A DNA stretch of 64,000 nt, taken from positions 3,510,920-3,574,919 of the forward strand of contig NZ_LR593887.1 in assembly GCF_901538355.1 (NCBI RefSeq), written 5' to 3'. Shown piece by piece: positions 40,657 to 56,647 of the stretch. Origin of the DNA: Tuwongella immobilis (GTDB lineage: Bacteria > Planctomycetota > Planctomycetia > Gemmatales > Gemmataceae). Position numbers and translations under genes: made by a program. Position 1 is the first letter of the stretch; every line of letters begins with the position of its first letter. The notes beneath the pieces were generated by a model, which did not search any database, was not told the origin of the DNA, and saw only the letters and a list, made by a program, of their open reading frames with translations.

Positions 40657-41100
40657 ATGTCCGAACTCATGGAATCGTTGTATTCCCGACCGGCGGAACC
40701 GCAGCCACCTCGTCCACGGAAGATCAAAACCGTTCCCTTCGTCGAATTGTACCGCGATCGATTGCAAGGGGTCGCCTCCAGCGATTCGGACATCGAACGG
40801 GTCTATTGTGCCTTTATCACGGCGGTCACCGGTGAGCATTATTCAAGCACGAATAACGATCGCCCCGATGCCGGCACCGCGAAACGCATTCGCTATCTGG
40901 TCGATGAAGCGTATGCCCAATATGGCGAGGCACGGGTTCGCCGGTTTCTCCAGCTTGCCCAAGATCCGCGCTCGCGTCTCGGCCCGCAACGCCGGGCACC
41001 CGCCAGCGAAGTATTCAGCCGATTCCTGAATTATCTCAAATTTCTCGATCGCCAAATCGCTGATCCCGCCATTCCGGAAATGGCGTGGTTTCTCGAATAA
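40657..41100 (+). CDS. Hypothetical protein, 147 aa, first gene of VWA/MoxR/DUF5682 operon
   Basis: No known family was recognised. The protein is soluble, has a Pro-rich, basic N-terminal segment (about residues 11-23), and then appears helical (DSDIERVYCAFITAVTGEHY; GEARVRRFLQLAQDP; the C-terminal FSRFLNYLKFLDRQI). The ATG at 40657 follows GAAGGA; the frame is open to 40609, but that start has no ribosome site and lies almost on the predicted -10 box. The next gene begins nine bases after its stop. By position it could be a regulator, adaptor or small effector of the ATPase system, but nothing in the sequence decides this. Confidence 0.85.
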   Translation: MSELMESLYSRPAEPQPPRPRKIKTVPFVELYRDRLQGVASSDSDIERVYCAFITAVTGEHYSSTNNDRPDAGTAKRIRYLVDEAYAQYGEARVRRFLQLAQDPRSRLGPQRRAPASEVFSRFLNYLKFLDRQIADPAIPEMAWFLE

Positions 41101-41109
41101 GGGGCCCGC

Positions 41110-42519
41110 ATGTCGCTACGTCAGCCACTGACCGTCCCCGAGGCGGTTTCCACCACGCAACAACTGATCGTCGCAATCGATTCGGTCCTGACGATCGGCA
41201 TCGGTCGACTCGGCCCCGAACAAACCGAAACGCTGTCCCGATTAACCCGCATCGCCACCGGCAGCCCGTTGGAGGTGCCGATTCGAGACGCGATTGAGGC
41301 GATCGGACGCAACGAATTTCAGGATAAGCACTTCTTGGCGATTGCTGCATTCCGCGTCGCGCTCCAAGGTGCAATTGCCGATCGACTCCGACACGTCGCC
41401 GCCGAGTCACTCGGACGACCAAGCCCCGCATGCGACGATCCCCAACCGATTCACCCGGCACCGATTGATGGTCCGGTTGGAAGTCGGCAAGAAGCGACGC
41501 GAAATTGGTTGATGGAACTGGCGATTGCGGGATTTCAGAATCTGGATGCATCGACAGTCGATCCATTCCTCACGACGCTGGAACGCCTGCAAGACGAACC
41601 AGCCGCCGCACGATTGGCCGCGCTATTGACTGGATTTGTTGGCGAACTCAACGCCGCGTTACCGCTGACGGATAGCAGCGTGCTGCCGACGTATCGCTGG
41701 TGCGATTTATGGAGCCGAGCGTTCGTTCTGGCCTCGCGATCGCTCGAATCCGCCGCAGGTTCGCAAGTCCATGGCACATTCTTCCCCATGGGCGTCGATT
41801 TGCGGCATCATGGATTTGTGGTGCAAGCCGAAGTCTACGGGATTCTCGAATCGCCGCAGGCGGAGTGGGTCCGCGTTCCCGTTGCATCCTACAAAGTCGA
41901 TGTATTAGTCGGCCCTGAGATGTTACGCAGCTTCGAAAGTCGGCTACCGCAGCTTTGGGAAGCACTCAAGTCGGGTAAATCGCTCCAAGTCAGCGATGCG
42001 GTCCGACTTCCGGGCGGACTCCTCCGACTCGATGGCGAGTTGAAGTTGGGCAGTGCGATCGATTTCACCGCGCTGACCGATCGTTTCGCCGTGGGTGCCG
42101 AGAATCTCCCGAAGGAAGATCCCCTTCCTGGTGCGGATCGTCACCCGCTGCTGCTGGCCGAGCCAGTGACACTCACCGGAGTTTCGGTACTTGCGGATTC
42201 CCCCGCACGATTGAAGCTCCCCGATGGCAGCGAGTTGGCAATCGCCACCAAGCGGATCAGTCCCAGTAGCGAACTGAATGTCAGCAATCTGACCAAGATG
42301 GATCGCGTATTCGGCCTGCTGCGATTCGATGGCAAAGATTGGTCGATTCAACCGCTGATTGCCTCGCTTTCGACCAAGAAAAATAGCGAGATTCGCACCG
42401 GAAGCAGCATCCTCGACGCCACTGCGAAGAAAAAGGGCGACACGTTGGAACAACTTCAGGAGCGAGCGAGCCGACTGCTTCGCGCCAAGCCCAGCAGTAA
42501 AACAGGGGCCACACCATGA
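41110..42519 (+). CDS. Hypothetical protein, 469 aa, in VWA/MoxR/DUF5682 operon
   Basis: No family was recognised. The first 210 residues look mainly helical (PEAVSTTQQLIVAIDSVLTI; ARLAALLTGFVGELNAALP). The middle, from about residue 225 to 425, looks beta-rich, with a GTFFPMGVDLRHHGFVVQAE segment and repeated LxLxDG-type strands. The last 30 residues are Lys/Arg/Ser-rich. There is no signal peptide, membrane helix or CxCx-CxH pattern, so it is not a SWIM zinc-finger protein. The ATG follows AAGGGG, and the stop overlaps the VWA gene by 4 bases, implying coupled expression with it. It may hold the position that SWIM or DUF5691 partners take in related operons. Confidence 0.88.
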   Translation: MSLRQPLTVPEAVSTTQQLIVAIDSVLTIGIGRLGPEQTETLSRLTRIATGSPLEVPIRDAIEAIGRNEFQDKHFLAIAAFRVALQGAIADRLRHVAAESLGRPSPACDDPQPIHPAPIDGPVGSRQEATRNWLMELAIAGFQNLDASTVDPFLTTLERLQDEPAAARLAALLTGFVGELNAALPLTDSSVLPTYRWCDLWSRAFVLASRSLESAAGSQVHGTFFPMGVDLRHHGFVVQAEVYGILESPQAEWVRVPVASYKVDVLVGPEMLRSFESRLPQLWEALKSGKSLQVSDAVRLPGGLLRLDGELKLGSAIDFTALTDRFAVGAENLPKEDPLPGADRHPLLLAEPVTLTGVSVLADSPARLKLPDGSELAIATKRISPSSELNVSNLTKMDRVFGLLRFDGKDWSIQPLIASLSTKKNSEIRTGSSILDATAKKKGDTLEQLQERASRLLRAKPSSKTGATP

Positions 42520-44153
42520 GCGACAACTCGCTGGCGACGACTGGCACTTCTGCGGACGATCTCGCCCTACGAAATCAGCGGCAGGTGATCTTCTGGCGGC
42601 TCTTGGCCACCGTCTTTGCCATGAATTCCAACGCGCCGAATTTCCAAGCGCTTGCCGAGGAAATCGCGGAATCACTGGAACTGCCTGAAGCGATTCTCGA
42701 ACCCACACTTGGAGTCGATTCGCTGATCCAGCGCTACCCCGATCTGGAGGGTGATTTTGATCGCCTCAAGGAGATTCTGACCGCGCCGGAGAATCCGCTC
42801 GCCGATCTCGCCGCCAATGACGATGCCGACGACGATGCGGAGGACTCCGACGACGATGCGGATGCCGATGCCGAAACGGAAGAATCGGCAGCGACGCCGA
42901 GTGTTCCTCCCGCAACGACGCAACCCCAAGCGAAAGCCGGACTTGCAACCGAAAGCGATGCATCGGCAGGTGGCCCGAGCGTGGCGGATGCGTTACCCAC
43001 GACAGCCGACGGCGAACCAAAGCCGGATTTGCGGCGCAGTCTGGTCTATTCCAAGCTGTTGCTCAACGTCTTTGGGCCGAATACGCAATCGCGGCAGATC
43101 ACGGCGACGCAGTACAACCAGTGGTGCAAAGACGTGGGTCGGCTGGAGGATGTCCTCGGCTATCGTCCGGGTGGTCTGCGGGGCAAATCCAACGCAGGCG
43201 GTTCGGGTTCGGGTGCGGGTGCCTCGTCGACTGGCACTGGCGGCGGGGTGCCGATCACCGATGAAGAATTGCAAGCGGGCATCAAGGCGATGGAAGGGCA
43301 ATTGATCGACCGGATGCACCTGCGCGAGGTGCTCAAAGACGATCAGATGGCTGCGAGTCTGACACCGTCGATGCCGCTGATGGAGCAATTGCTGCGGGAT
43401 AAATCGAATCTCTCTGGCAATGCCCTGAAGAACGCAAAATCGCTGATTTCCTCGTACATTCAGCAACTGGCGGATGTGTTGCGGTTGCAGGTCATGCGAG
43501 CCGTGAAGGGGAAACTCGATCGCTCGGTTCCACCGAAACGGGTGTTCCGAAACTTGGATTTGAAGCGGACGCTTTGGAAGAACCTCATCAATTACAATCC
43601 CGAGGATCGTCGGCTTTATGTGCAGCAGTTGTACTATCGTCAGACGGCGACCAAATCAACGCCCACGCGGATGATCGTGGTGGTGGATCAATCCGGTTCG
43701 ATGGTCGATGCAATGGTCCAATGCACGATTCTGGCCTCGATTTTCGCCGGTCTGCCGCGCGTGGATATGCACCTAATGGCGTTCGATACGCAAGTCATCG
43801 ACTTGACGCCGTGGGTGCAAGATCCGTTTGAAGTGCTAATGCGCACGAATCTGGGCGGCGGCACGCTGATCCGCAAGGCATTGCTGGAAGCGATGCAGAA
43901 AATCGAAGAACCACGCAACACCGCGTTGGTGCTGATCTCCGACTTTTTCGAAGGTGGCAGCGACCAGGAATTGCTCGATACCATCGTCGCCATCAAGACT
44001 TCCGGCGTGAAATTCATCCCCGTCGGTGCTGTCACCAGCTCGGGATATTTCTCCGTCAGCCAGTTCTTCCGCACCAAGTTGAAGGAACTCGGCACCCCCA
44101 TTTTGACTGGCAACATCAAGAAACTGATCAACGAACTCAAAAATTTGCTGTAA
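42516..44153 (+). CDS. VWA domain protein (YehP-like)
   Basis: This is a 545-residue soluble protein. An acidic stretch of Asp/Glu/Ala lies at about residues 101-125, then a linker, a helical middle region (about 165-370), and a C-terminal von Willebrand A domain. The MIDAS motif is intact: DQSGSM near residue 390, the threonine in RTNLGGGTLIRKA, and the aspartate in LISDFFEGG. The C-terminal segment reads GTPILTGNIKKLINELKNLL. VWA proteins paired with MoxR ATPases act as metal-dependent partners that deliver or remodel targets. It overlaps the preceding gene by 4 bases and precedes the MoxR gene by 17, so a complex with both is likely. Confidence 0.9.
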   Translation: MSDNSLATTGTSADDLALRNQRQVIFWRLLATVFAMNSNAPNFQALAEEIAESLELPEAILEPTLGVDSLIQRYPDLEGDFDRLKEILTAPENPLADLAANDDADDDAEDSDDDADADAETEESAATPSVPPATTQPQAKAGLATESDASAGGPSVADALPTTADGEPKPDLRRSLVYSKLLLNVFGPNTQSRQITATQYNQWCKDVGRLEDVLGYRPGGLRGKSNAGGSGSGAGASSTGTGGGVPITDEELQAGIKAMEGQLIDRMHLREVLKDDQMAASLTPSMPLMEQLLRDKSNLSGNALKNAKSLISSYIQQLADVLRLQVMRAVKGKLDRSVPPKRVFRNLDLKRTLWKNLINYNPEDRRLYVQQLYYRQTATKSTPTRMIVVVDQSGSMVDAMVQCTILASIFAGLPRVDMHLMAFDTQVIDLTPWVQDPFEVLMRTNLGGGTLIRKALLEAMQKIEEPRNTALVLISDFFEGGSDQELLDTIVAIKTSGVKFIPVGAVTSSGYFSVSQFFRTKLKELGTPILTGNIKKLINELKNLL

Positions 44154-44170
44154 CGGAAAGGGATACGATC

Positions 44171-45436
44171 ATGGCGAAGAAATCAGCGAAATCGGCGGCG
44201 GCGGCTCCCACGGAATCCCCGGCGGAAGTCACGACCGAAACCACGACGACTCCAGTTGCAGCAACTCCGGCCGTCAGTTCGACACCAGCTCCTGCCCCAG
44301 CAGCGGCGGCGAAGTCGGGCGGGGATACGATTTTGCGTCAACCGGCGGAAGTGAAATATGCCGATGAATTGGCGTATCTGATTGGCGTGGATACTGCACC
44401 GCGACCGTTTACCTGGCGATTGTCGCCGCGGATGGTGCGGACATTTATTCTCGGTTCCAAGCCATCGGATAAGCTCGACCGCGAAATCAAGCAGAAATTT
44501 TACGGCGATCCCAGCGTCGTGGAACGGGCGATTGTCACGTTGGCATCGGATCGCGGGTTGCTGCTGATCGGCGATCCGGGCACGGGCAAAAGTTGGCTGG
44601 CGGAATTGCTGGCGGCGGCGGTGTGCGGAAACTCCACGCACGTCGTGCAAGGCACCGCCGGAACGACCGAAGATCAGATCAAATACTCCTGGAACGTGGC
44701 GATGGTGATTGCCGCCGGTCAATCGCAGCAATCGCTGATTCCATCGCCGATTATGACCGCCATGAAAAAGGGCGAAATTGGCCGATTTGAAGAACTCACG
44801 CGCTGCACCTCCGACGTGCAAGATGCGTTGATCTCGATCCTTTCGGAAAAGTATGTCTCGGTGCCGGAATTGTCCGGCGGCGACGGGGTGGTCTTCGCTC
44901 AGCCGGGGTTCAACATCATTGCCACCGCGAATAGTCGGGATCGCGGCGTCAACGACCTGTCCACCGCGCTGAAGCGGCGGTTCAATTTCGTTCAGATTCC
45001 CGTGGTCACCAATAAGAAAACTGAAAAGGAAATCGTGCTGTTCCGCACCAAGGAACTGCTGGCTCGCAATCAATTCAGCGTCGATGTTCCGCCCGCACTC
45101 ATGGATGTGCTGCTGCAAACCTTTGCGGATATGCGACAAGCAGCGGCAGCGGCGACAAGCGACGATTCCAAGCTGGAATCGTCACTCTCCACGGCGGAAC
45201 AGATTGGCGTGCTGGAAGATGCGGTCCTGCATGGGCAGTTCTTTGGCCAGTCGATGCTGGATTCCGCAACCTTGGCGAAATCGATTGTTGGCACACTGGT
45301 GCGACGGATTCCGGAAGATGTCTCGATTTTGAACAAATTCTGGCATAGCGTCGTCGAAAAGCACGCGAAGGAAGATAAGGGCGAATGGGTGTCGTTTCTG
45401 CAAGGCGGAAAAGACGCGATGTCCAACATGAGCTAA
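44171..45436 (+). CDS. MoxR-type AAA+ ATPase (YehL-like)
   Basis: This is a 421-residue protein. Residues 1 to about 50 are Ala/Thr/Pro-rich and probably disordered. The AAA+ core has Walker A GDPGTGKS at about residues 134-141, a Walker B region reading GRFEELTRC where most MoxR proteins have DEIN, a sensor-1 asparagine in NIIATANSRDRG, and the arginine-finger region ALKRRFNF. The lid domain follows, with a Ser/Ala-rich insert. The acidic pair EE in place of DE is a small departure. It should form a hexamer that works with the VWA protein; GGAAAGGG precedes the ATG. Confidence 0.92.
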   Translation: MAKKSAKSAAAAPTESPAEVTTETTTTPVAATPAVSSTPAPAPAAAAKSGGDTILRQPAEVKYADELAYLIGVDTAPRPFTWRLSPRMVRTFILGSKPSDKLDREIKQKFYGDPSVVERAIVTLASDRGLLLIGDPGTGKSWLAELLAAAVCGNSTHVVQGTAGTTEDQIKYSWNVAMVIAAGQSQQSLIPSPIMTAMKKGEIGRFEELTRCTSDVQDALISILSEKYVSVPELSGGDGVVFAQPGFNIIATANSRDRGVNDLSTALKRRFNFVQIPVVTNKKTEKEIVLFRTKELLARNQFSVDVPPALMDVLLQTFADMRQAAAAATSDDSKLESSLSTAEQIGVLEDAVLHGQFFGQSMLDSATLAKSIVGTLVRRIPEDVSILNKFWHSVVEKHAKEDKGEWVSFLQGGKDAMSNMS

Positions 45437-45448
45437 CGGAGGCGAGTC

Positions 45449-48406
45449 ATGAGTCCGAGCAAATCGCCGCCGAATGCCGCGCCGCCGAGTGCGAATCCGC
45501 CGCTTCCGGGGGTGGATGCCCCGCTTCGCCAACAGCTGTTGGATGCCGCCAAACAATTCGGCGGGGGGGAAGATGCGCTCTCGAAAATCTGGGCGGGAAT
45601 CCTGGATGATGTCGATCGGCTGATGCACGAACGGCTGGAGATTTTCCCCGTTTGTCACCATTCGCCCGCTTCGGCGGTGCATTTGGTGCAGCGTCTCCGC
45701 CGTCAGCCGCCGCGTGTGATTTTCATGGAGATGTGCGAAGATTTTCGCCCGCTGTGCGAGAAACTCCGCGATTGCCGACTGCCGGTGGCGTTCCAAGCGT
45801 TCGCGGGTGCCTCGCAAGCCTTTCCCGCCAGTTGGACGCCGTTGGCAGTGGTGGCACCGCTAACGGAATTCTCCGCGGAATATCAGGCGATTGTCTACGC
45901 CATGGAACGCCCGACGACGGAATTGGTCTTCGTCGATCGCAGTGTCGATTTGTTGTTCCAATGGATGCCGCAAAAGGAAGATGAGCTCGAAAAGCATCTG
46001 GGCAAAGAGACCGGCGAGGGCGAAGCGCCCGATCCCGGCGAGGGCGAAGCGGAGGGACCGAGCAGCCACGGCACCGCCGTCGGAATCCAAATCGGCGAGA
46101 TCGAACCGACATTCGAGCAGTTCCGCGAATTCCTACTGCAAAACGCCCAGGTTCGCTACTTTTCCGAATGGTGGGAACAATATGTCGAGCAGGCGATCAT
46201 TGGCCGAGATTATGTCACCTATCGGCAAGTGATGGCGCTCGTGGGGAGTCTGCTGCGGAAACTTGGTCGAAAGGACGATGACCTGGAATCCGACCGCAAG
46301 CGTGAACGATTCATGTGGACGCGGATGAAGGAGTATCTGCGCGAACATGCGATTGCGCCGGAAGATGCGCTGTACATCTGCGGGGCGGCCCACATTGCCA
46401 GCGATGTTCCGGAATTCGGCACGCGAACGGATGCGACCTGGGAGATTCCCGCGCGCTCGCCAACGGCGTGGTTGTATGGCACGATTCCGTCGAGCTATTC
46501 CGCAATCGAGGCGCAATTCCATCACCCGGCAGGCACCGTCACGCTGGCGGATGCGAATTGGCAGAAGGCGCAACGTGGCCTGGAAATCGAGCCGTTCATT
46601 CTGACAAAATCGGACGGCAAAAATGCGAAGCAGGCGCAGAAAGCGCTCGCGATTCCCGCCTCGCCGCATGTGCCGGCGGTGGCAAGTCAGCGGAGTGGAT
46701 TGCTGAGTTATCTCACCTCTCCGCCCGAAGTTGGGTTGGAGGATGAGGAACAGTTGCTGGCGTGGTGTGTGGGAATTGTCGGGTCGGCTCGGAAACACGG
46801 CTACATGTCATCCACCGCCGATTCTATCGCCATTTATCACACGGCCAAACTGTTGGGACAACTGCGAAATCGGCCGCATCCCTCGGCATACGATTTTCGA
46901 GATGCCGCGATTACCTGCCTGGAAAAAGACCGCACCCCGAAGAAACGCAATATCGAGCGATTATGCGAAATTCTTCTCGGCGGCGATCGATTCGGCCAAG
47001 TCGGGTACACATCGCTGCCGCCGCTGGCGCAGGATGTCTACGATCGACTCGCGCCATTGAATTTGAATCTCCAGGCAACCGCGCTGCAACGTGCCCTGCT
47101 CGATTTCCGGGCGCATCCGGAATTACTCGCCTGCTCGGATTTGCTCTGGAAACTGCGCTATCTGCTCGCGGAGCGAACCGTGCGGGTGATTATGGGGGAG
47201 CGCACCCTGGGCCACACCCCGGTGCAGGAATCGTGGGATATTGCCATCGGCAAGAATCAGACACCGCTGATTATGCTGGGCTACGAAGGGGTGACGATCG
47301 AGCAAGTGCTCGAAAAGCGCATCAAAGCCAAGGCATTTGCCAGCGAAGCGACGGCGGCGGATGCGCTGGCAATGGTCGAAGATACGATTCTCTATCTGAA
47401 AAGTATTCGACTTTCGGAAGAAATCGGCGAGCATGCGATTCGGTTGCTGCTCGAAGAAACTGGGGCGCAAACCGCTCCGGAAATCTTCGAGCGAGTGCGG
47501 AAACTGGTGGGATATTATCGCTCCACCGCGTCGGGGTTGCCGAGCTGGTTGAAGCGCTTCATCACCACGGGCTATTCGCACTATTCGACATTGCTGCCGA
47601 CGGCCTTTTCGGATCGCGGAACGACTCCGGAGCAGATTGCCGGGATGCTGTCGTTCTTATTCACGCTGGAAAGTCTGGCACTGTCGCTGGGCTGTCAGCG
47701 GAGTCAGTTGCTCATCGCCGTGCAACAAGCCGGGCCGGTAACCAGCGACCCGCCCAAGTTGGGACTGCTCTGGTCGGCGGAGTGGGTGTTAGGCTTGCGG
47801 ACCATCGATCAGATTCGGATCTATTTTCTCGATCTGCTCGAAAATCCGTTGGCGATCGGATCGTATCCCGGCTATGTGCAAGGGTTTCTGCTGGCGTTGA
47901 AATTTACATCGCTGGTGGGGCGGCTGGTCGTGGAACTGCTGTCGCGGGCGTTTGAGCGGCTGCCGGATCGCATTCTGCTGCCGTGGTTGCCGGGGTTGAT
48001 TATGACCCTGAAACCGCACATGGATACGCTGATGCCCGTATTGCTGAAAGAGGCATCGGCGTGCTTCCCGGCGAAGCTCAAGCAGTTGCTGAACTGGCAA
48101 GCGCCGTGGGATCGAGCGGCCCCGCCCAAACCCGCCGTCAGCGACAGTCGACCGACGTTCGAACGCACCCCGGAAGATGCGGCGATTTTCGGCCTGCTGC
48201 ACGCCCATCCACAATCCACGAATGCGCTCGCGGGCTTGTTGGGGGCCACCGTGCAATGGAATCTCGGCGGCGAATCCGCTGGAGAATCCGCCAGCACCAC
48301 TGTCGCGCTCACGCCAGAAGATCAACTCGTGGTGACACTTCTGCGCGAAATGGGCACGACGGCGAATAGTCTGAAAATGATCCTTCCAGGATCATCGACA
48401 CACTAA
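45449..48406 (+). CDS. DUF5682-family protein (YehM-like)
   Basis: This is a 985-residue soluble protein. The N-terminal half carries the family marks IFPVCHHSPASAVHL near residue 67, VIFMEMCEDFRPL near 90, and LYICGAAHIASDVPEF near 310. Paired His-containing motifs recall TIKI/EreA/TraB-like hydrolases, but that relation is inference. An acidic GEGE-rich insert is near residue 190. The C-terminal half is helical (about 480-890) with a low-complexity end. It starts 12 bases after the MoxR stop with GGAGG, and it is the last gene of the operon. By homology to the yehLMPQ set, it is probably the component processed or delivered by the MoxR/VWA pair, or the effector. No activity is proven. Confidence 0.88.
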   Translation: MSPSKSPPNAAPPSANPPLPGVDAPLRQQLLDAAKQFGGGEDALSKIWAGILDDVDRLMHERLEIFPVCHHSPASAVHLVQRLRRQPPRVIFMEMCEDFRPLCEKLRDCRLPVAFQAFAGASQAFPASWTPLAVVAPLTEFSAEYQAIVYAMERPTTELVFVDRSVDLLFQWMPQKEDELEKHLGKETGEGEAPDPGEGEAEGPSSHGTAVGIQIGEIEPTFEQFREFLLQNAQVRYFSEWWEQYVEQAIIGRDYVTYRQVMALVGSLLRKLGRKDDDLESDRKRERFMWTRMKEYLREHAIAPEDALYICGAAHIASDVPEFGTRTDATWEIPARSPTAWLYGTIPSSYSAIEAQFHHPAGTVTLADANWQKAQRGLEIEPFILTKSDGKNAKQAQKALAIPASPHVPAVASQRSGLLSYLTSPPEVGLEDEEQLLAWCVGIVGSARKHGYMSSTADSIAIYHTAKLLGQLRNRPHPSAYDFRDAAITCLEKDRTPKKRNIERLCEILLGGDRFGQVGYTSLPPLAQDVYDRLAPLNLNLQATALQRALLDFRAHPELLACSDLLWKLRYLLAERTVRVIMGERTLGHTPVQESWDIAIGKNQTPLIMLGYEGVTIEQVLEKRIKAKAFASEATAADALAMVEDTILYLKSIRLSEEIGEHAIRLLLEETGAQTAPEIFERVRKLVGYYRSTASGLPSWLKRFITTGYSHYSTLLPTAFSDRGTTPEQIAGMLSFLFTLESLALSLGCQRSQLLIAVQQAGPVTSDPPKLGLLWSAEWVLGLRTIDQIRIYFLDLLENPLAIGSYPGYVQGFLLALKFTSLVGRLVVELLSRAFERLPDRILLPWLPGLIMTLKPHMDTLMPVLLKEASACFPAKLKQLLNWQAPWDRAAPPKPAVSDSRPTFERTPEDAAIFGLLHAHPQSTNALAGLLGATVQWNLGGESAGESASTTVALTPEDQLVVTLLREMGTTANSLKMILPGSSTH

Positions 48407-49690: not shown

Positions 49691-52375
49691 ATGCCGCAGT
49701 TACGCCAATCTCCCCTACGCTCCCTCGAAGAGTTGGAACGTCGGGATACGCCGACGACGTGGGTGGTGAACACCAGCGACGATGTGAATATCGCCGTTGA
49801 TGGGAAACTCACGCTGCGAGAAGCACTCTTAGCAGCGATCACCAACAGCGCGGTCGGTGACGCGGCGGCGGGCGATCCCACTCAAGAAGATGTCATTACG
49901 TTTGATCTCGGCCCCAATCCGCGATTGCTCGTCATCACCGGCAACGGCCTGCCAACCATCAGCGGTGGTGGGCCACTGCGAATCGACGGCTCGCTCCCGG
50001 ACGGAAAGATTGTCCACATTGATGGCAGTCTGGTCCCGGATGGCGTCCCAGGCTTGATCATCGAGAACTCGAGCGGCGTGGTGCTCCACAAGTTAACCAT
50101 CGCTCGATTTCGGGATTCCGGGATCATCATCCAAAATTCCAGTAATGTCACGATCACCAGCTCGACCGTTGGCACCAATCCTGCCAACGCAATCGGCCTG
50201 GGCAATCGCGGGCACGGCATCCACATTCGCGGTGGATCGCAGCAGGTGACCATCGGCGGAACCACACCCGAGTTGGGCAATCGCATCTCCGCCAATCGCG
50301 ATTCCGGGGTCCGTGTCGAACCGGATAGTCACTCGGTCGCCATTCTGGGCAACATCATCAACGGGCACGGAACACTTGGCATCGATCGCGGGATCGAAGG
50401 CGTTGGTGGCACGGGTCCAACCGGCCCGGCATTTCCGGTCTTGTCGCAAGCCCACGTTACCCCGAATGGCTTGGTGATTACGGGCACGCTCACCGGTCGG
50501 CCGCTCCAGGAATACCGCGTTGAATTCTTCCGTGGAAATCCGCCCAACGCCTCGGGCCACGGCGAAGCCACGACGTTCATCAGCAGCATCCAAGTGATCA
50601 CGGATGCCAATGGCGTGGCCAATTTCCGCACGCCCAATCTCCCGCCGATCATTTCCAACGCGGCCATCACCGCGACGGCAACGGATTGGACCACGCAAGA
50701 TACCAGCGAGTTTGCTGCCAATATCCTCAGCAAACGCACCGGTGGCACCGTCCATGGCGTCGTGTTTCGAGACAACAATTTCAACGGCATTCAGGATGCG
50801 GGCGAGCCGGGAATCGCCAACGCACAAGTCTATGTTGATGCCGATGGGAACAACACATTCTCCGAAGGGGAAATCATCGTCTCGACGAATTCCCTCGGGG
50901 AATTCATGTTCACGCTGGAAAACGATGGCAATTATTCGCTGCGACAATTGCCAATCGAAGGATTCACGACAACAACTCCCTTCCCACCAGCGTTCCCCGT
51001 CATCGGCGGCACGAAAACGACGGGGATTTCGTTCGGAAATCGCGTCACTCCCGATGGCGGCACCCCCAGCGGCAGCGTCTCTGGAATCGTCTATCGAGAT
51101 TTGAATCAAAATTCGGTTCGAGACGCAGATGATCCACTGCTTCCGGGTGTTCGTGCGTACTTGGATCTGAACAATAATCAGCGATACGATGTGGGTGAAC
51201 CGACGGGATTCACCAATGCGGATGGTGTCTACACGATCACCGCACCGATCAACCGGACGTATCTGGTTCGCATCGAATCGCCGAGCCAACTCACTCCGGT
51301 TTCGCAAGATGCGTATTCGGTGACCGTGACGGATGGTCGGCCGCAGACCGGATTGGATTTTGGCCTGCGTGCCATCAATCGGAATCTCCTTCTGGGTGGG
51401 CCACGCTACGCGGTTGGGGCCGATGCGGGTGGTGCACCGATTGTGCGAATTTACGCACAAGAGAATCCCGAACCGCTTCTGACGATTCAGGCCTTTGATT
51501 CGCAGTTTACCGGCGGCGTTCGGGTGGCCATGGGCGATGTCAACCGGGATGGCATTCCAGACGTCTTCGCGGCGGCTGGACCGGGAGCGCCACCAGAAGT
51601 TCGCGTTTACGATGGCCAAACCGGCATGCTCATCGGCACGATTCTCGCCTTTGAAGCCAGTTTCCGCGGCGGCGTCTTCATCTCGACGGCGGACTTCAAT
51701 TTTGACGGCGTGACCGATTTCGTTGTCTCACCCGATCAGGGTGGTGGACCGCGTGTGCGAATCCTGGATGGGAACTCGCTGGCAACGATCGCCGACTTCT
51801 TCGGGATCGAAGACCCCAATTTCCGTGGGGGTGCCCGAGTTGCGATCACGGATATCAACCGCGACGATGTTCCGGATCTGCTCATCGCAGCGGGATTTGG
51901 AGGCGGGCCACGGGTCGCCGCGTTCGATGGTCGCTCCTTGCGATCGGGTGCGACTCCGGTGAAATTCTTCGGCGATTTCTTCCTGTTCGAGCCGACGCTG
52001 CGAAACGGCGTCTATCTGGCAGGTGGCGATATTGACGGAGATGGCTTTGGAGATCTGGTCGCTGGCGGTGGGCCGGGCGGCGGACCACGGGTGTTTGCGC
52101 TCTCGGGTCGGCGTCTCATTGAATCATCGGGCGCAGATCAGGTCGTTCTGGCAAACTTTTTTGCAGGTTCCTCGGCAAGTCGCGGCGGAATTCGGTTGTC
52201 GATGAAGGATCTCGACGGCGATAATCGGGCGGAGATTGTCGCGGGGGCTGGAACCGGCGATGGTGCTTTCACCGCCGCATTTCGCGGATCCTCGGTTACT
52301 CCCGACGGAGAGCCGACGAGTATGCTGCGGATGGAGGTGTTTCCGGACTTTCGCGGCGGAGTCTACGTTGGCTAA
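49691..52375 (+). CDS. Large surface protein with beta-helix, SdrD-like and FG-GAP repeats
   Basis: This is an 894-residue protein. The N-terminus has the LRSLEELERRDTP segment (residues 9-21), the planctomycete LExLExR-type motif, in place of a normal signal peptide. Residues about 25-240 form parallel beta-helix repeats (SGVVLHKLTIARFRDSGIII; SSNVTITSSTVG). Two SdrD-like B domains follow (GVVFRDNNFNGIQDAGEPG near 355; GIVYRDLNQNSVRDADDP near 465). The C-terminal third has four or five FG-GAP/VCBS blades with calcium-type motifs such as GDVNRDGIPDVFAAAG and GDIDGDGFGDLVAGGG. A calcium-stabilised surface protein is inferred. No sortase-like or PEP-type tail is visible. Confidence 0.87.
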   Translation: MPQLRQSPLRSLEELERRDTPTTWVVNTSDDVNIAVDGKLTLREALLAAITNSAVGDAAAGDPTQEDVITFDLGPNPRLLVITGNGLPTISGGGPLRIDGSLPDGKIVHIDGSLVPDGVPGLIIENSSGVVLHKLTIARFRDSGIIIQNSSNVTITSSTVGTNPANAIGLGNRGHGIHIRGGSQQVTIGGTTPELGNRISANRDSGVRVEPDSHSVAILGNIINGHGTLGIDRGIEGVGGTGPTGPAFPVLSQAHVTPNGLVITGTLTGRPLQEYRVEFFRGNPPNASGHGEATTFISSIQVITDANGVANFRTPNLPPIISNAAITATATDWTTQDTSEFAANILSKRTGGTVHGVVFRDNNFNGIQDAGEPGIANAQVYVDADGNNTFSEGEIIVSTNSLGEFMFTLENDGNYSLRQLPIEGFTTTTPFPPAFPVIGGTKTTGISFGNRVTPDGGTPSGSVSGIVYRDLNQNSVRDADDPLLPGVRAYLDLNNNQRYDVGEPTGFTNADGVYTITAPINRTYLVRIESPSQLTPVSQDAYSVTVTDGRPQTGLDFGLRAINRNLLLGGPRYAVGADAGGAPIVRIYAQENPEPLLTIQAFDSQFTGGVRVAMGDVNRDGIPDVFAAAGPGAPPEVRVYDGQTGMLIGTILAFEASFRGGVFISTADFNFDGVTDFVVSPDQGGGPRVRILDGNSLATIADFFGIEDPNFRGGARVAITDINRDDVPDLLIAAGFGGGPRVAAFDGRSLRSGATPVKFFGDFFLFEPTLRNGVYLAGGDIDGDGFGDLVAGGGPGGGPRVFALSGRRLIESSGADQVVLANFFAGSSASRGGIRLSMKDLDGDNRAEIVAGAGTGDGAFTAAFRGSSVTPDGEPTSMLRMEVFPDFRGGVYVG

Positions 52376-53554: not shown

Positions 53555-53647
53555 CGTCGCGTTCGTAACGCAATTCATTCTGAGGGGTTGAATCAAGAGA
53601 CAGCCCCCACTGGGGGGAACCAGGCACCGATCGAGGAGCAACGGCTG

Positions 53648-55342
53648 ATGGACAGCAATCCGAAATCTGCACCCGGTTCCACCTCGGCGAATTCCACCAG
53701 CGGGGATCGCACCCCCGATTTGGTCAACCAAACCTTGGGCGATTTCCAACTCTTGCGGAAACTTGGCCAAGGCGGCATGGGTCAAGTCTATCTCGCGCGA
53801 CAACTCACCCTCAAACGGCAAGTCGCGGTCAAAATCCTTCGCGCGGAACTGGCCCAAAATGTGACCGCCCTGCGACGCTTTCAGGCCGAAGCCGAAGCCG
53901 TCGCCCGCATTGTCCACGCCAATATCGTGCAGGTTTACGCCATCGGCGAGCAAAACGGCCTCAACTACATGGCGTTGGAGTTTGTCGATGGTCGCACGCT
54001 CCGCGATTATCTCGTCCGCAAAGGCACGCTCGATCTGCCCGTTGCCTTGAGCATCATGCGGCAAGTGCTGGCCGCCTTGGCCCGCGCCCACGAGATGGGC
54101 TTTGTGCATCGCGACATCAAACCGGAAAACATTCTGATTTCCCGCAAGGGCGAAGCGAAAGTGACGGACTTCGGCCTTTCCCGCTGCTTCGCCACCGATG
54201 AGCCGCTGAATATCACCCAATCCGGCGTGACCATGGGCACACCGTTGTACATGAGTCCCGAACAGGTCCAAGGACACGCCGTCGATCCACGAACCGATTT
54301 ATATTCGTTCGGAGTCACCTGCTTCCATTTATTGTGTGGCGAACCACCGTTTCGGGGCAATACGCCATTCGAAGTCGCGCTCCAGCACGTCCAGGCGGAA
54401 CCGCCGCAGCTGCGCGCCATCCGTCCCGACTTGCCCGACGAATTATGTCAACTCGTTCACAAACTGATGGCCAAGCGGAAGGAAGATCGCTTTGCCACCG
54501 CCAAGGAAGTGCTTCGGGATCTGGCCCGGATTCGCGAGCAATTGGGCATGTTGCCCGGCACGACGGCCCCGGTCATGCCGCTGACCAATCCTGCCAGCCA
54601 AACGCTGCAAACCACCAGCGACCCGAATCGGGCTGGCCTCCCCGCCGCCGGCAGCGAACCGCGATTGGGGACATTGACCGGCACAATCCCGTCGCAACCC
54701 TCTTCATCGCAGCGGCGAATCCGCATGCTCGTCGGTGCGGTGGCCCTGGTCGCCAGTGGTGCAATCGGATTCTGGTTGAATGAACAATCGCTGCGATCGA
54801 GTTCGCCAGTGGAAGTCAGCCGTGAAGATTCTGCGGGAACCGCCCTGCCCAGCCCCCCGGCCAGCGACCCGAGCGCGAGCTTGCCGAAACTCGCCTCACT
54901 CCGCGAACGTGCATTGCTGGCCGAGTTGAAATCTCCCAAGATCGACCCGGTTCGATTGACGCAGTTCACCGTCGAATTGGCGTTGATTTATGTGGAAGAA
55001 CGGCGATTGGACGAAGCGGAGCAGTTGTTCCGCAGTCTGAGTCGCGGCGGAATCCTTCCGCGCAACCGACTTCCCGAAATCGGCGTCGCGATTGTCACCG
55101 CCTATCGAGACGATGTGGATCCGGAAGCCGCCGTGAAGTCGGCTGCCAAATTTCTCGAAGTGTTGGGCGAACGGGATGGCAAAGTTGCCGCCGTCACATT
55201 GCGAGGATACCCGCTATTGTCGCAGGCCATTGGCGTGGCGTTGCAGCGCAATGCCGAAAACCTGAAGGCACAAGGCAAGTCACTCGATCCGAAATTGGAA
55301 CGATTCCGCAGCGGCCAGGGGATTTTCACCCCGAAAGCCTGA
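53648..55342 (+). CDS. Transmembrane Ser/Thr protein kinase (PknB-like)
   Basis: This is a 564-residue protein. After about 30 low-complexity residues, the kinase domain shows the glycine loop LGQGGMGQVYLA at about 39-50, the lysine in VAVKIL (about 62), HRDIKPEN at about 154, DFGLSR at about 174, and GTPLYMSPEQ in the activation segment. A Pro/Ser/Thr linker leads to one membrane helix (about 358-377) and an outer domain of about 185 residues that looks helical and TPR-like. The frame is open upstream to a TTG at 53588, but the ATG at 53648 has GAGGAG nine bases before it. It converges on another kinase gene with a three-base gap. Confidence 0.92.
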   Translation: MDSNPKSAPGSTSANSTSGDRTPDLVNQTLGDFQLLRKLGQGGMGQVYLARQLTLKRQVAVKILRAELAQNVTALRRFQAEAEAVARIVHANIVQVYAIGEQNGLNYMALEFVDGRTLRDYLVRKGTLDLPVALSIMRQVLAALARAHEMGFVHRDIKPENILISRKGEAKVTDFGLSRCFATDEPLNITQSGVTMGTPLYMSPEQVQGHAVDPRTDLYSFGVTCFHLLCGEPPFRGNTPFEVALQHVQAEPPQLRAIRPDLPDELCQLVHKLMAKRKEDRFATAKEVLRDLARIREQLGMLPGTTAPVMPLTNPASQTLQTTSDPNRAGLPAAGSEPRLGTLTGTIPSQPSSSQRRIRMLVGAVALVASGAIGFWLNEQSLRSSSPVEVSREDSAGTALPSPPASDPSASLPKLASLRERALLAELKSPKIDPVRLTQFTVELALIYVEERRLDEAEQLFRSLSRGGILPRNRLPEIGVAIVTAYRDDVDPEAAVKSAAKFLEVLGERDGKVAAVTLRGYPLLSQAIGVALQRNAENLKAQGKSLDPKLERFRSGQGIFTPKA

Positions 55343-55345
55343 TGA

Positions 55346-56647
55346 TTACCCGCCCATCAGATACGCACGGGCTTCGATGAAGATGGTGGCACAGCGTTCC
55401 CGCCACGTCTCATCATTGAGTTGAGCGACGGAATTGGGACGGAAGATCAGTTCAATCAACAACTTACTATCGCCCCGCGCCTCCACGGAATGCAAGCGGA
55501 GTTCGAGTTCGATTGCGGTCGATTTTCGCCCCAATCCCAACCAAGACAATGCCGATCCGCGCGTGCGCCCCCGCTGCCCCATCCGCACTCGAATCAGTCC
55601 GGGCACGCTTTCCAACACCTCGCCGCCGGAATCGTGGACGAAGCCGCGCACCTTCACAATCGCAATCGATTGTGGCATCCACGCTTCCATGTGATAGGTG
55701 AGTACCGATGGATCGCGCGTCAACTCCGGCATCATCAGTTCGGGCTGCGTCACACGGCTTGGTTCTTCGTAGTACTCCTCTTGCGGCTCCATGTCCGAGA
55801 GCAGTGCCCCTTCGAACCACTCGGCCAACACACGTGCCGACTGCGGGCGATCTTCGCGATTTTTCGCCAAGCAGGTGAATACCACTTGCTCCACCAGCGG
55901 CGGAATGTAGATCCCCATATTCAATTCGCCGAACGATGGTGGAACTTCGGTGGCATGAGCCAGCAGCATATCCATGCTGGACGGGCCGAGAAACGGCAGT
56001 CGTCCGGTGAGCAGTTCGTACATAATCACGCCAACCGAGTAGATGTCGCCGCGATGGTCCATCTCTTCGCCGCGGACCTGCTCCGGGCAGATGTAGCCGG
56101 GCGTCCCGACGGCGAAATCGACGTTCGTGTCGGTGACTTTCTTCATTTCATCGCGTTCGACCATCTTCGCCAGACCGAAATCCATCACCTTGATGGTTTC
56201 GTTGGGCGTATCCGGTTCAATCACCATCAAGTTGGACGGTTTGAGATCGCGGTGGATCATGCCACTCTCGTGGGCGGCGTGCAAGACATCGCACAATTGT
56301 CCGATCAGCCGCCCGACGCGAGCGGGGTTAAATCGCGTATTTTTTTCGAGAAGTTTATCGAGGTTTTTGCCCCGAATATATTCCATGACCAAACATGGGC
56401 CAAGCGGATCCTCCAACGATGCGTCCAGGAATGACACGCAGTACGGGTGTCGGAACCCCTTCATGAGTTCGGATTCGCGGGCGAAGCGGTCCCGAAATTT
56501 TTGATCTTCAGCAATGTGTTCGTGCATCACTTTCACGACCACTTGCCGATTGTTGTCAAGCGAACGTGCCAGATACACCCGCCCCATGCCCCCTTCGCCG
56601 ATTAAGCGGAGGACTTCGTAGCGGCCCATGAAAATTCGACCGATCAT
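55346..56647 (-). CDS. Soluble Ser/Thr protein kinase
   Basis: This is a 433-residue protein with no membrane helix. The kinase domain has the glycine loop IGEGGMGRVYLA at about residues 16-27, the lysine in VVVKVM (39), HRDLKPSN at about 132, DFGLAK at about 156, and GTPGYICPEQ. Residues after about 290 form a separate C-terminal region beginning with a Glu/Pro-rich linker; part of it (PQSIAIVKVRGFVHDSGGEV) looks beta-rich and is unassigned. Its targets are unknown. A weak ribosome site precedes the ATG at 56647; an in-frame ATG six codons later is possible. Confidence 0.92.
   Translation of the reverse strand: MIGRIFMGRYEVLRLIGEGGMGRVYLARSLDNNRQVVVKVMHEHIAEDQKFRDRFARESELMKGFRHPYCVSFLDASLEDPLGPCLVMEYIRGKNLDKLLEKNTRFNPARVGRLIGQLCDVLHAAHESGMIHRDLKPSNLMVIEPDTPNETIKVMDFGLAKMVERDEMKKVTDTNVDFAVGTPGYICPEQVRGEEMDHRGDIYSVGVIMYELLTGRLPFLGPSSMDMLLAHATEVPPSFGELNMGIYIPPLVEQVVFTCLAKNREDRPQSARVLAEWFEGALLSDMEPQEEYYEEPSRVTQPELMMPELTRDPSVLTYHMEAWMPQSIAIVKVRGFVHDSGGEVLESVPGLIRVRMGQRGRTRGSALSWLGLGRKSTAIELELRLHSVEARGDSKLLIELIFRPNSVAQLNDETWRERCATIFIEARAYLMGG

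What the first reader, a model, noticed from the sequence alone, without database searches (positions are those of the whole stretch)
40657..48406. Five-gene VWA/MoxR/DUF5682 operon, a possible conflict or remodelling system
The sequence shows a tightly packed operon (gaps of -4 to 17 bases) encoding two unrecognised proteins, a VWA protein with intact MIDAS, a MoxR-type AAA+ ATPase and a 985-residue DUF5682-type protein. E. coli YehP, YehL and YehM are the established counterparts of the last three, and related operons are thought to be NTP-dependent systems that may act in biological conflict. No SWIM-domain partner (YehQ-like) is present, so this is a variant with two new components. The proposed defence or quality-control role is inference.
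Basis: partly seen in the sequence, partly recalled or inferred. Interest (0 to 1): 0.85.

Follow-up and report, generated by a model that had tools for sequence, protein, structure and literature searches.

The report
Divergent YehL-type five-gene AAA+ chaperone operon
Five neighbouring genes encode an ATP-driven protein-remodelling machine of unknown purpose that recurs, in the same gene order, in actinomycetes and myxobacteria; it is a distinct variant of a system E. coli also has (YehL, YehM, YehP, YehQ), and one of its two 'unknown' proteins proves to be a zinc-finger-like (SWIM-like) protein that has lost its zinc site in this genome.

Summary
The operon is real at the stated coordinates (gaps 9, -4, 17, 12 bases). 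Pfam confirms VWA_CoxE, AAA_5/MoxR and DUF5682. The order X-Y-VWA-MoxR-DUF5682 recurs in two Myxococcales contigs (a third is cut off before X) and five actinomycete replicons; X, Y and DUF5682 searches hit the same five of 72,556 plasmid records. MoxR, VWA and DUF5682 each place the set in one fully supported clade. In 392 genomes of the phylum, Y occurs only in the window's genome.

The claim that no SWIM partner is present is probably wrong: X belongs to a SWIM-like family (relatives carry C-x7-C-x6-C-x-H; profile match E 6.7e-13 to a domain in related DUF5682 operons). Only the window's X has lost every ligand. Y may correspond to the YehQ body; that evidence is weak. So this looks like a rearranged relative of YehL/M/P/Q.

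Best reading: a MoxR-VWA remodelling machine with DUF5682 as third core part and X/Y as recognition parts; client unknown. A defence role is not supported: no PADLOC, phage or viral match, no effector domain, housekeeping neighbours. New variant of a known, experimentally uncharacterised kind.

The parts
40657..41100 (+). X, 147 aa: SWIM-like family protein, zinc ligands lost in this copy
   Evidence: Homologues at 40-46% identity in 7 loci; X-family profile vs C-terminal domain of SWIM-like proteins of related operons, hhalign E 6.7e-13, 0 of 40 shuffles as high
40834..40890 (+). Remnant of the SWIM-like site: EHYSSTNNDRPDAGTAKRI, where relatives read FxCSTNNNRxCGGxRGxxCxHI/L; three Cys and the His replaced, four residues missing
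   Evidence: Alignment; no cysteine-rich alternative in the other frames
41110..42519 (+). Y, 469 aa, no database family; candidate counterpart of the YehQ body / of the protein encoded between the SWIM-like gene and moxR in related operons
   Evidence: No Pfam, NCBIfam or PADLOC match; homologues 27-39% identical in 8 loci; weak profile match to that protein, E 0.01, 0 of 150 shuffles as high, falling to 0.13 with a larger set
42516..44153 (+). VWA protein, 545 aa, CoxE/YehP-like VWA at the C-terminus
   Evidence: PF05762 E 2.1e-33; clade support 100/100
43686..43700 (+). MIDAS core DQSGS (residues 391-395)
   Evidence: Alignment
44171..45436 (+). MoxR-type AAA+ ATPase, 421 aa, YehL-like (RFEELTR in the Walker B position, shared with E. 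coli YehL)
   Evidence: PF07728 E 2.1e-38; alignment; 72-81% identity to the other five-gene loci
44570..44593 (+). Walker A GDPGTGKS (residues 134-141)
   Evidence: Alignment
45449..48406 (+). DUF5682 protein, 985 aa, divergent branch; conserved HHSPAS, MEMCED and CGAAH motifs
   Evidence: PF18934 E 3.1e-29; only copy in the genome; 47-59% identity to the other five-gene loci

Best explanation
The operon encodes a distinct, vertically coherent branch of the YehL/YehM/YehP/YehQ type of MoxR-VWA machine. Shown: five co-conserved genes; an AAA+ MoxR ATPase with its nucleotide motifs; a VWA protein with an intact MIDAS; a DUF5682 protein; and X, a SWIM-like protein whose zinc site is lost in this genome. 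Inferred from MoxR/VWA biochemistry (NorQ/NorD, RavA/ViaA): the MoxR hexamer binds the VWA protein and uses ATP to pull on or twist a client protein held through the VWA protein. Inferred with less support: DUF5682 is the third core subunit that docks or processes the client, and X with Y are the recognition subunits, doing the job that SWIM-domain YehQ does in E. coli. The outcome would be maturation or remodelling of a specific, still unknown client rather than killing of an invader.
For: Same five genes in the same order in two Myxococcales loci (a third is cut off before X) and five actinomycete loci. X, Y and DUF5682 searches return the same five of 72,556 plasmid records. MoxR and VWA trees put the nine loci in one clade at 100/100, the DUF5682 tree at 100 SH-aLRT; the MoxR and DUF5682 trees agree on window plus Myxococcales against actinomycetes. 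In the MoxR tree the nearest branch (94/92) is the same-family operon type whose upstream genes encode X-like SWIM proteins. DUF5682 membership: E 1.5e-30. Walker A, sensor and Arg-finger motifs and the MIDAS are intact. MoxR-VWA mechanism: NorQD structures (PMC13036017); MoxR proteins mature specific complexes (PMC3893208).
Against: No experiment exists on any DUF5682 protein in the papers searched (no paper with the term). Y's link to YehQ is weak (E 0.01 to 0.13). X does not reach Pfam's SWIM model and its motif (C-x7-C-x6-C-x-H) is not the standard CxC...CxH. The zinc site is lost in the window, so X's function may differ here. Both AlphaFold models are poor (pLDDT 43.8 and 42.7), so no complex or fold is shown.
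Confidence: 0.62

Rival explanations
1. A conflict (anti-phage or inter-bacterial) system: MoxR-VWA acts as an NTP-dependent switch that releases or activates an effector, with X/Y as sensors and DUF5682 as the effector.
For: Patchy distribution over three phyla; some copies on large actinomycete plasmids; conflict systems built on MoxR-VWA pairs are described (PMC7159879). One actinomycete copy lies near an N-6 DNA methylase.
Against: No PADLOC match for the five proteins; no relative in 50,697 phage records or viral contigs; no variable effector domain, the VWA protein ends with its VWA domain; all five parts conserved rather than swapped; window neighbours are housekeeping genes; the described third components (VMAP, iSTAND, beta-propeller) are absent.
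Confidence: 0.13
2. A metal- or cofactor-insertion chaperone in the strict NorQD/CoxD sense, serving one enzyme.
For: VWA is of the CoxE-like Pfam family; NorQD and CoxD act this way.
Against: No metalloenzyme gene is linked to the operon in the window; the partners DUF5682, X and Y are not part of NorQD or Cox systems.
Confidence: 0.2
3. Two or more unrelated modules that only happen to be transcribed together (X-Y on one side, VWA-MoxR-DUF5682 on the other).
For: X and Y have low identity (27-46%) compared with MoxR (72-81%).
Against: X, Y and DUF5682 are found in exactly the same plasmid records, always in the same order.
Confidence: 0.05

Closest known systems
E. coli yehL-yehM-yehP-yehQ (MoxR YehL subfamily, DUF5682, VWA, SWIM)
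   Same: MoxR of YehL type with the RFEE(I/L)TR signature, CoxE-like VWA, DUF5682, a SWIM-type partner
   Different: Gene order L-M-P-Q against X-Y-VWA-MoxR-DUF5682; YehQ is one 614-aa protein with a Pfam SWIM domain, here two proteins of 147 and 469 aa and a decayed zinc site; DUF5682 on a long separate branch
Operons mostly from genomes of the window's own family: pentapeptide/SWIM-like protein(s) - 373-aa protein - MoxR - DUF5682 - VWA (L084, L085, L087, L089, L095, L097, L098, L104)
   Same: X-like SWIM domain, including stand-alone 177-aa copies; a second protein between it and moxR; nearest MoxR branch
   Different: SWIM-like genes in tandem arrays with pentapeptide repeats; VWA at the end; the 373-aa protein resembles Y only weakly
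SWIM (483 aa) - HEAT-repeat (600 aa) - MoxR - DUF5682 - VWA operons of the same phylum
   Same: Same three core proteins and a SWIM protein
   Different: Typical SWIM motif, a HEAT protein in Y's place, other order
NorQ/NorD and RavA/ViaA MoxR-VWA pairs
   Same: AAA+ plus VWA pair, the basis for the proposed mechanism (PMC13036017, PMC3893208)
   Different: Different MoxR subfamilies; no DUF5682, X or Y

Membership tests
YehL/YehM/YehP/YehQ-type system | DUF5682 protein | tested here: met
   102 bits against cut-off 26; profile-profile E 1.5e-30
YehL/YehM/YehP/YehQ-type system | CoxE-like VWA protein with intact MIDAS | tested here: met
YehL/YehM/YehP/YehQ-type system | MoxR ATPase of the YehL subfamily | tested here: inconclusive
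   Shares YehL signatures and clusters with YehL-type sequences, but no other MoxR subfamily was in the tree
YehL/YehM/YehP/YehQ-type system | SWIM zinc-finger partner with intact metal ligands | tested here: not met
   X is of a SWIM-like family but the window copy lacks all ligands; below Pfam's SWIM model in relatives too
YehL/YehM/YehP/YehQ-type system | YehQ-type body fused to SWIM | tested here: inconclusive
   Y is a separate protein; weak profile evidence only
YehL/YehM/YehP/YehQ-type system | ATP-dependent remodelling of a client | not testable with these tools
   Needs biochemistry; not shown for YehL itself in the papers searched
MoxR-vWA ternary conflict systems (Kaur et al. 2020) | Third component VMAP, iSTAND or beta-propeller | tested here: not met
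   No such family in the five proteins; bpMoxR only 20 bits against cut-off 27
MoxR-vWA ternary conflict systems (Kaur et al. 2020) | Variable effector domains C-terminal to vWA | tested here: not met
   VWA protein ends with the VWA domain in the five-gene loci read
Known anti-phage defence systems (PADLOC 2.0) | Match to a system model | tested here: not met
   Only weak ATPase and VWA background matches
TraB/EreA/ChaN superfamily (for DUF5682) | Profile similarity of the N-terminal domain | tested here: not met
   hhalign E 0.16 to 0.94, same as controls; fold-level kinship not testable with the poor model

The most novel reading that the evidence does not exclude
The five genes are a separate, undescribed class of AAA+ machine with its own client and a genuinely new subunit (Y), spread between actinomycetes, myxobacteria and this lineage, in which DUF5682 is an enzyme acting on the client and X has switched from zinc-dependent to zinc-free recognition in this genome.
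Probability: 0.15. Interest if true: 0.75.

Novelty: new variant of a known kind. Interest (0 to 1): 0.5.

Why it matters
YehL is one of only two MoxR ATPases of E. coli K-12 (PMC3893208), yet no function of YehL/M/P/Q or of DUF5682 was found in the papers searched. A compact five-gene version found intact in Streptomyces and Embleya gives a tractable, minimal set of parts, and the X/Y split with tandem SWIM-like arrays in relatives points to the SWIM side as the changeable recognition part. If confirmed, it makes the question 'what do YehL-type MoxR machines act on?' directly testable.

Tried and rejected
(1) DUF5682 as a TraB/EreA/ChaN relative, from the HHSPAS...MEMCED...CGAAH pattern: profile comparison no better than controls. 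(2) Structure prediction of Y and DUF5682 from 4 and 3 sequences: pLDDT 43.8 and 42.7; the PDB fold searches gave nothing below E 0.001 and are not used. (3) PDB sequence search: nothing significant. (4) Viral and phage relatives: none. (5) Defence-island reading of the surroundings: only one actinomycete copy near a methylase. (6) Recent transfer into this genome: G+C and GC3 of the five genes lie in or next to the range of the neighbours, so a transfer, if any, is old. (7) A hidden frameshift restoring X's cysteines: none in the other frames. (8) Y and the 373-aa protein as clear homologues: E 0.01 with 8 members, 0.13 with 12; left as weak. One of the added sequences (L168) was read in a wrong frame, seen as unaligned text in the error output; it lies in the larger set (and so in the 373-aa protein vs YehQ value of E 7.4e-4), not. 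(10) The L112 row of the VWA alignment was read in a wrong frame and is ignored; the tree used the coordinates.

Full report
1. Observation. The five ORFs stand at the stated coordinates on the + strand with gaps of 9, -4, 17 and 12 bases. Pfam finds VWA_CoxE in the third protein (E 2.1e-33), AAA_5 in the fourth (E 2.1e-38) and DUF5682 in the fifth (E 3.1e-29, 102 bits, cut-off 26); the first two, called X and Y here, have no family, none in NCBIfam above cut-off and none in PADLOC. The VWA MIDAS (DQSGS, GGGT, SDF) is intact. The MoxR protein has Walker A GDPGTGKS, the RFEELTR block in the Walker B position that E. coli YehL also has (RFEEITR), the ATAN sensor and the ALKRRF arginine finger.

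2. DUF5682 here is a divergent branch. It is the only copy in the 6.69-Mb genome. In 294 genomes of the phylum 30 have DUF5682, nearly all at 290 to 944 bits, against 101 for the window's. Within the order (102 genomes) only relatives under 48 bits were found. A profile of the five-gene branch still matches classical DUF5682 over 281 columns at E 1.5e-30, so membership is firm.

3. The five-gene order recurs. A scan of one genome for each of 84,980 species gave three Myxococcales MAG contigs with DUF5682 at 55-57% identity; two carry all five genes in the same order, the third begins inside the operon and lacks X. Plasmid records gave five more: Nonomuraea, two Embleya, two Streptomyces, all with the five genes in order. 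Independent searches with Y and with X returned the same five records of 72,556 and no others. Y was found in no other of 392 genomes of the window's phylum, and in 3 of 14 genomes of the Myxococcales order searched, the same three. The genome scan relies on exact short peptide patterns, so the number of loci is a lower bound. In trees of MoxR and VWA the nine loci form one clade with support 100/100; in the DUF5682 tree, a quick one, 100 SH-aLRT. The MoxR and DUF5682 trees join the window to the Myxococcales copies and set actinomycetes apart; in the VWA tree that fork is open.

4. X is a SWIM-like protein. In Myxococcales and actinomycetes X reads FxCSTNNNRxCGGxRGxxCxHI/L, with small variations. 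An HMM of three X sequences picked out, in operons mostly of the window's own family, proteins with pentapeptide repeats and a C-terminal CCTQNL..CGGLRG..CKHL domain, encoded upstream of moxR (E down to 2e-9), and stand-alone 177-aa copies. Profile against profile gives E 6.7e-13, probability 97.8; 0 of 40 column shuffles reached the score. That domain in turn resembles the Pfam-recognised SWIM region of other DUF5682 operons, weakly (E 1e-3), so the step from 'X family' to 'SWIM' rests on motif, place and a modest profile match. In the window's X the three cysteines and the histidine are replaced and four residues are missing, while the flanks (STNN.RP before; IPEMAWF at the end) are kept; no other frame supplies the ligands.

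5. Y. Predicted secondary structure is helical up to about residue 212 and beta-rich after it, but the model is poor (pLDDT 43.8). The protein encoded in Y's place in the related operons (373 aa) shares a collinear C-terminal stretch ending in GL(L/M)(R/H)(F/Y)...QPL, E 0.01; 0 of 150 shuffles reached the score for it or for YehQ. With a larger set the E-value fell to 0.13; that set held one sequence read in a wrong frame. The 373-aa protein itself matches the YehQ body at E 7.4e-4 (0 of 60 shuffles), a value from the same set and so to be taken with the same caution. X plus Y as a split YehQ is thus a reasonable but unproven reading.

6. Surroundings. Neighbours within the window are a DedA/VTT protein, a xylose-isomerase-like TIM barrel, prolyl-tRNA synthetase, NUDIX, DUF58, aldose epimerase, protein kinases, aldehyde dehydrogenase and dihydrouridine synthase: no mobile elements or defence genes were seen among those scanned. 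Base composition matches the neighbours.

7. Mechanism. For MoxR-VWA pairs the best-resolved case is NorQD, where the VWA protein inserts a finger into the AAA+ pore and ATP-driven movement remodels a linker needed for metal insertion (PMC13036017); RavA/ViaA and others mature specific complexes (PMC3893208). By analogy the window's MoxR and VWA proteins would form the motor, DUF5682 the third core part, and X/Y the part that chooses the client; tandem arrays of SWIM-like genes in related operons agree with a recognition role. Steps shown: parts, motifs, co-conservation, common descent. Steps inferred: complex formation, direction of force, client choice, client maturation.

8. Known or new. 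No paper in the searched library mentions DUF5682, and the few with two or more of yehL/M/P/Q are genome announcements or strain lists. The conflict-system survey does not mention YehL, YehM, YehP, SWIM or DUF5682 in its main text. I rate it a new variant of a known, uncharacterised kind.

Noticed in passing
L097 1-6309, L095 12753-18999, L098 13880-19001, L087 556-5370, L089 11237-15478: Tandem arrays of 2 to 5 SWIM-like genes, most with N-terminal pentapeptide repeats, upstream of the 373-aa protein, moxR, DUF5682 and VWA genes; looks like a diversifying recognition part.
   Followed up: partly
L072, L080, L081, L082: DUF5682 and VWA fused in one protein of about 1200-1270 residues, followed by a SWIM gene.
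   Followed up: no
L086 10932-13952 and L090 11356-15927: YehI (DUF4132)-like genes next to YehL-type operons, as in E. coli where yehI lies just upstream of yehK and yehL.
   Followed up: no
L097 11809-14216: Two adjacent, overlapping VWA-gene matches after DUF5682, possibly a duplication.
   Followed up: no
window 53588-55342 (+) and 55346-56647 (-): Two convergent protein-kinase genes.
   Followed up: no
window 49691-52375: 894-aa protein that by eye has a beta-helix-like region followed by FG-GAP-like repeats; not searched against any library.
   Followed up: no
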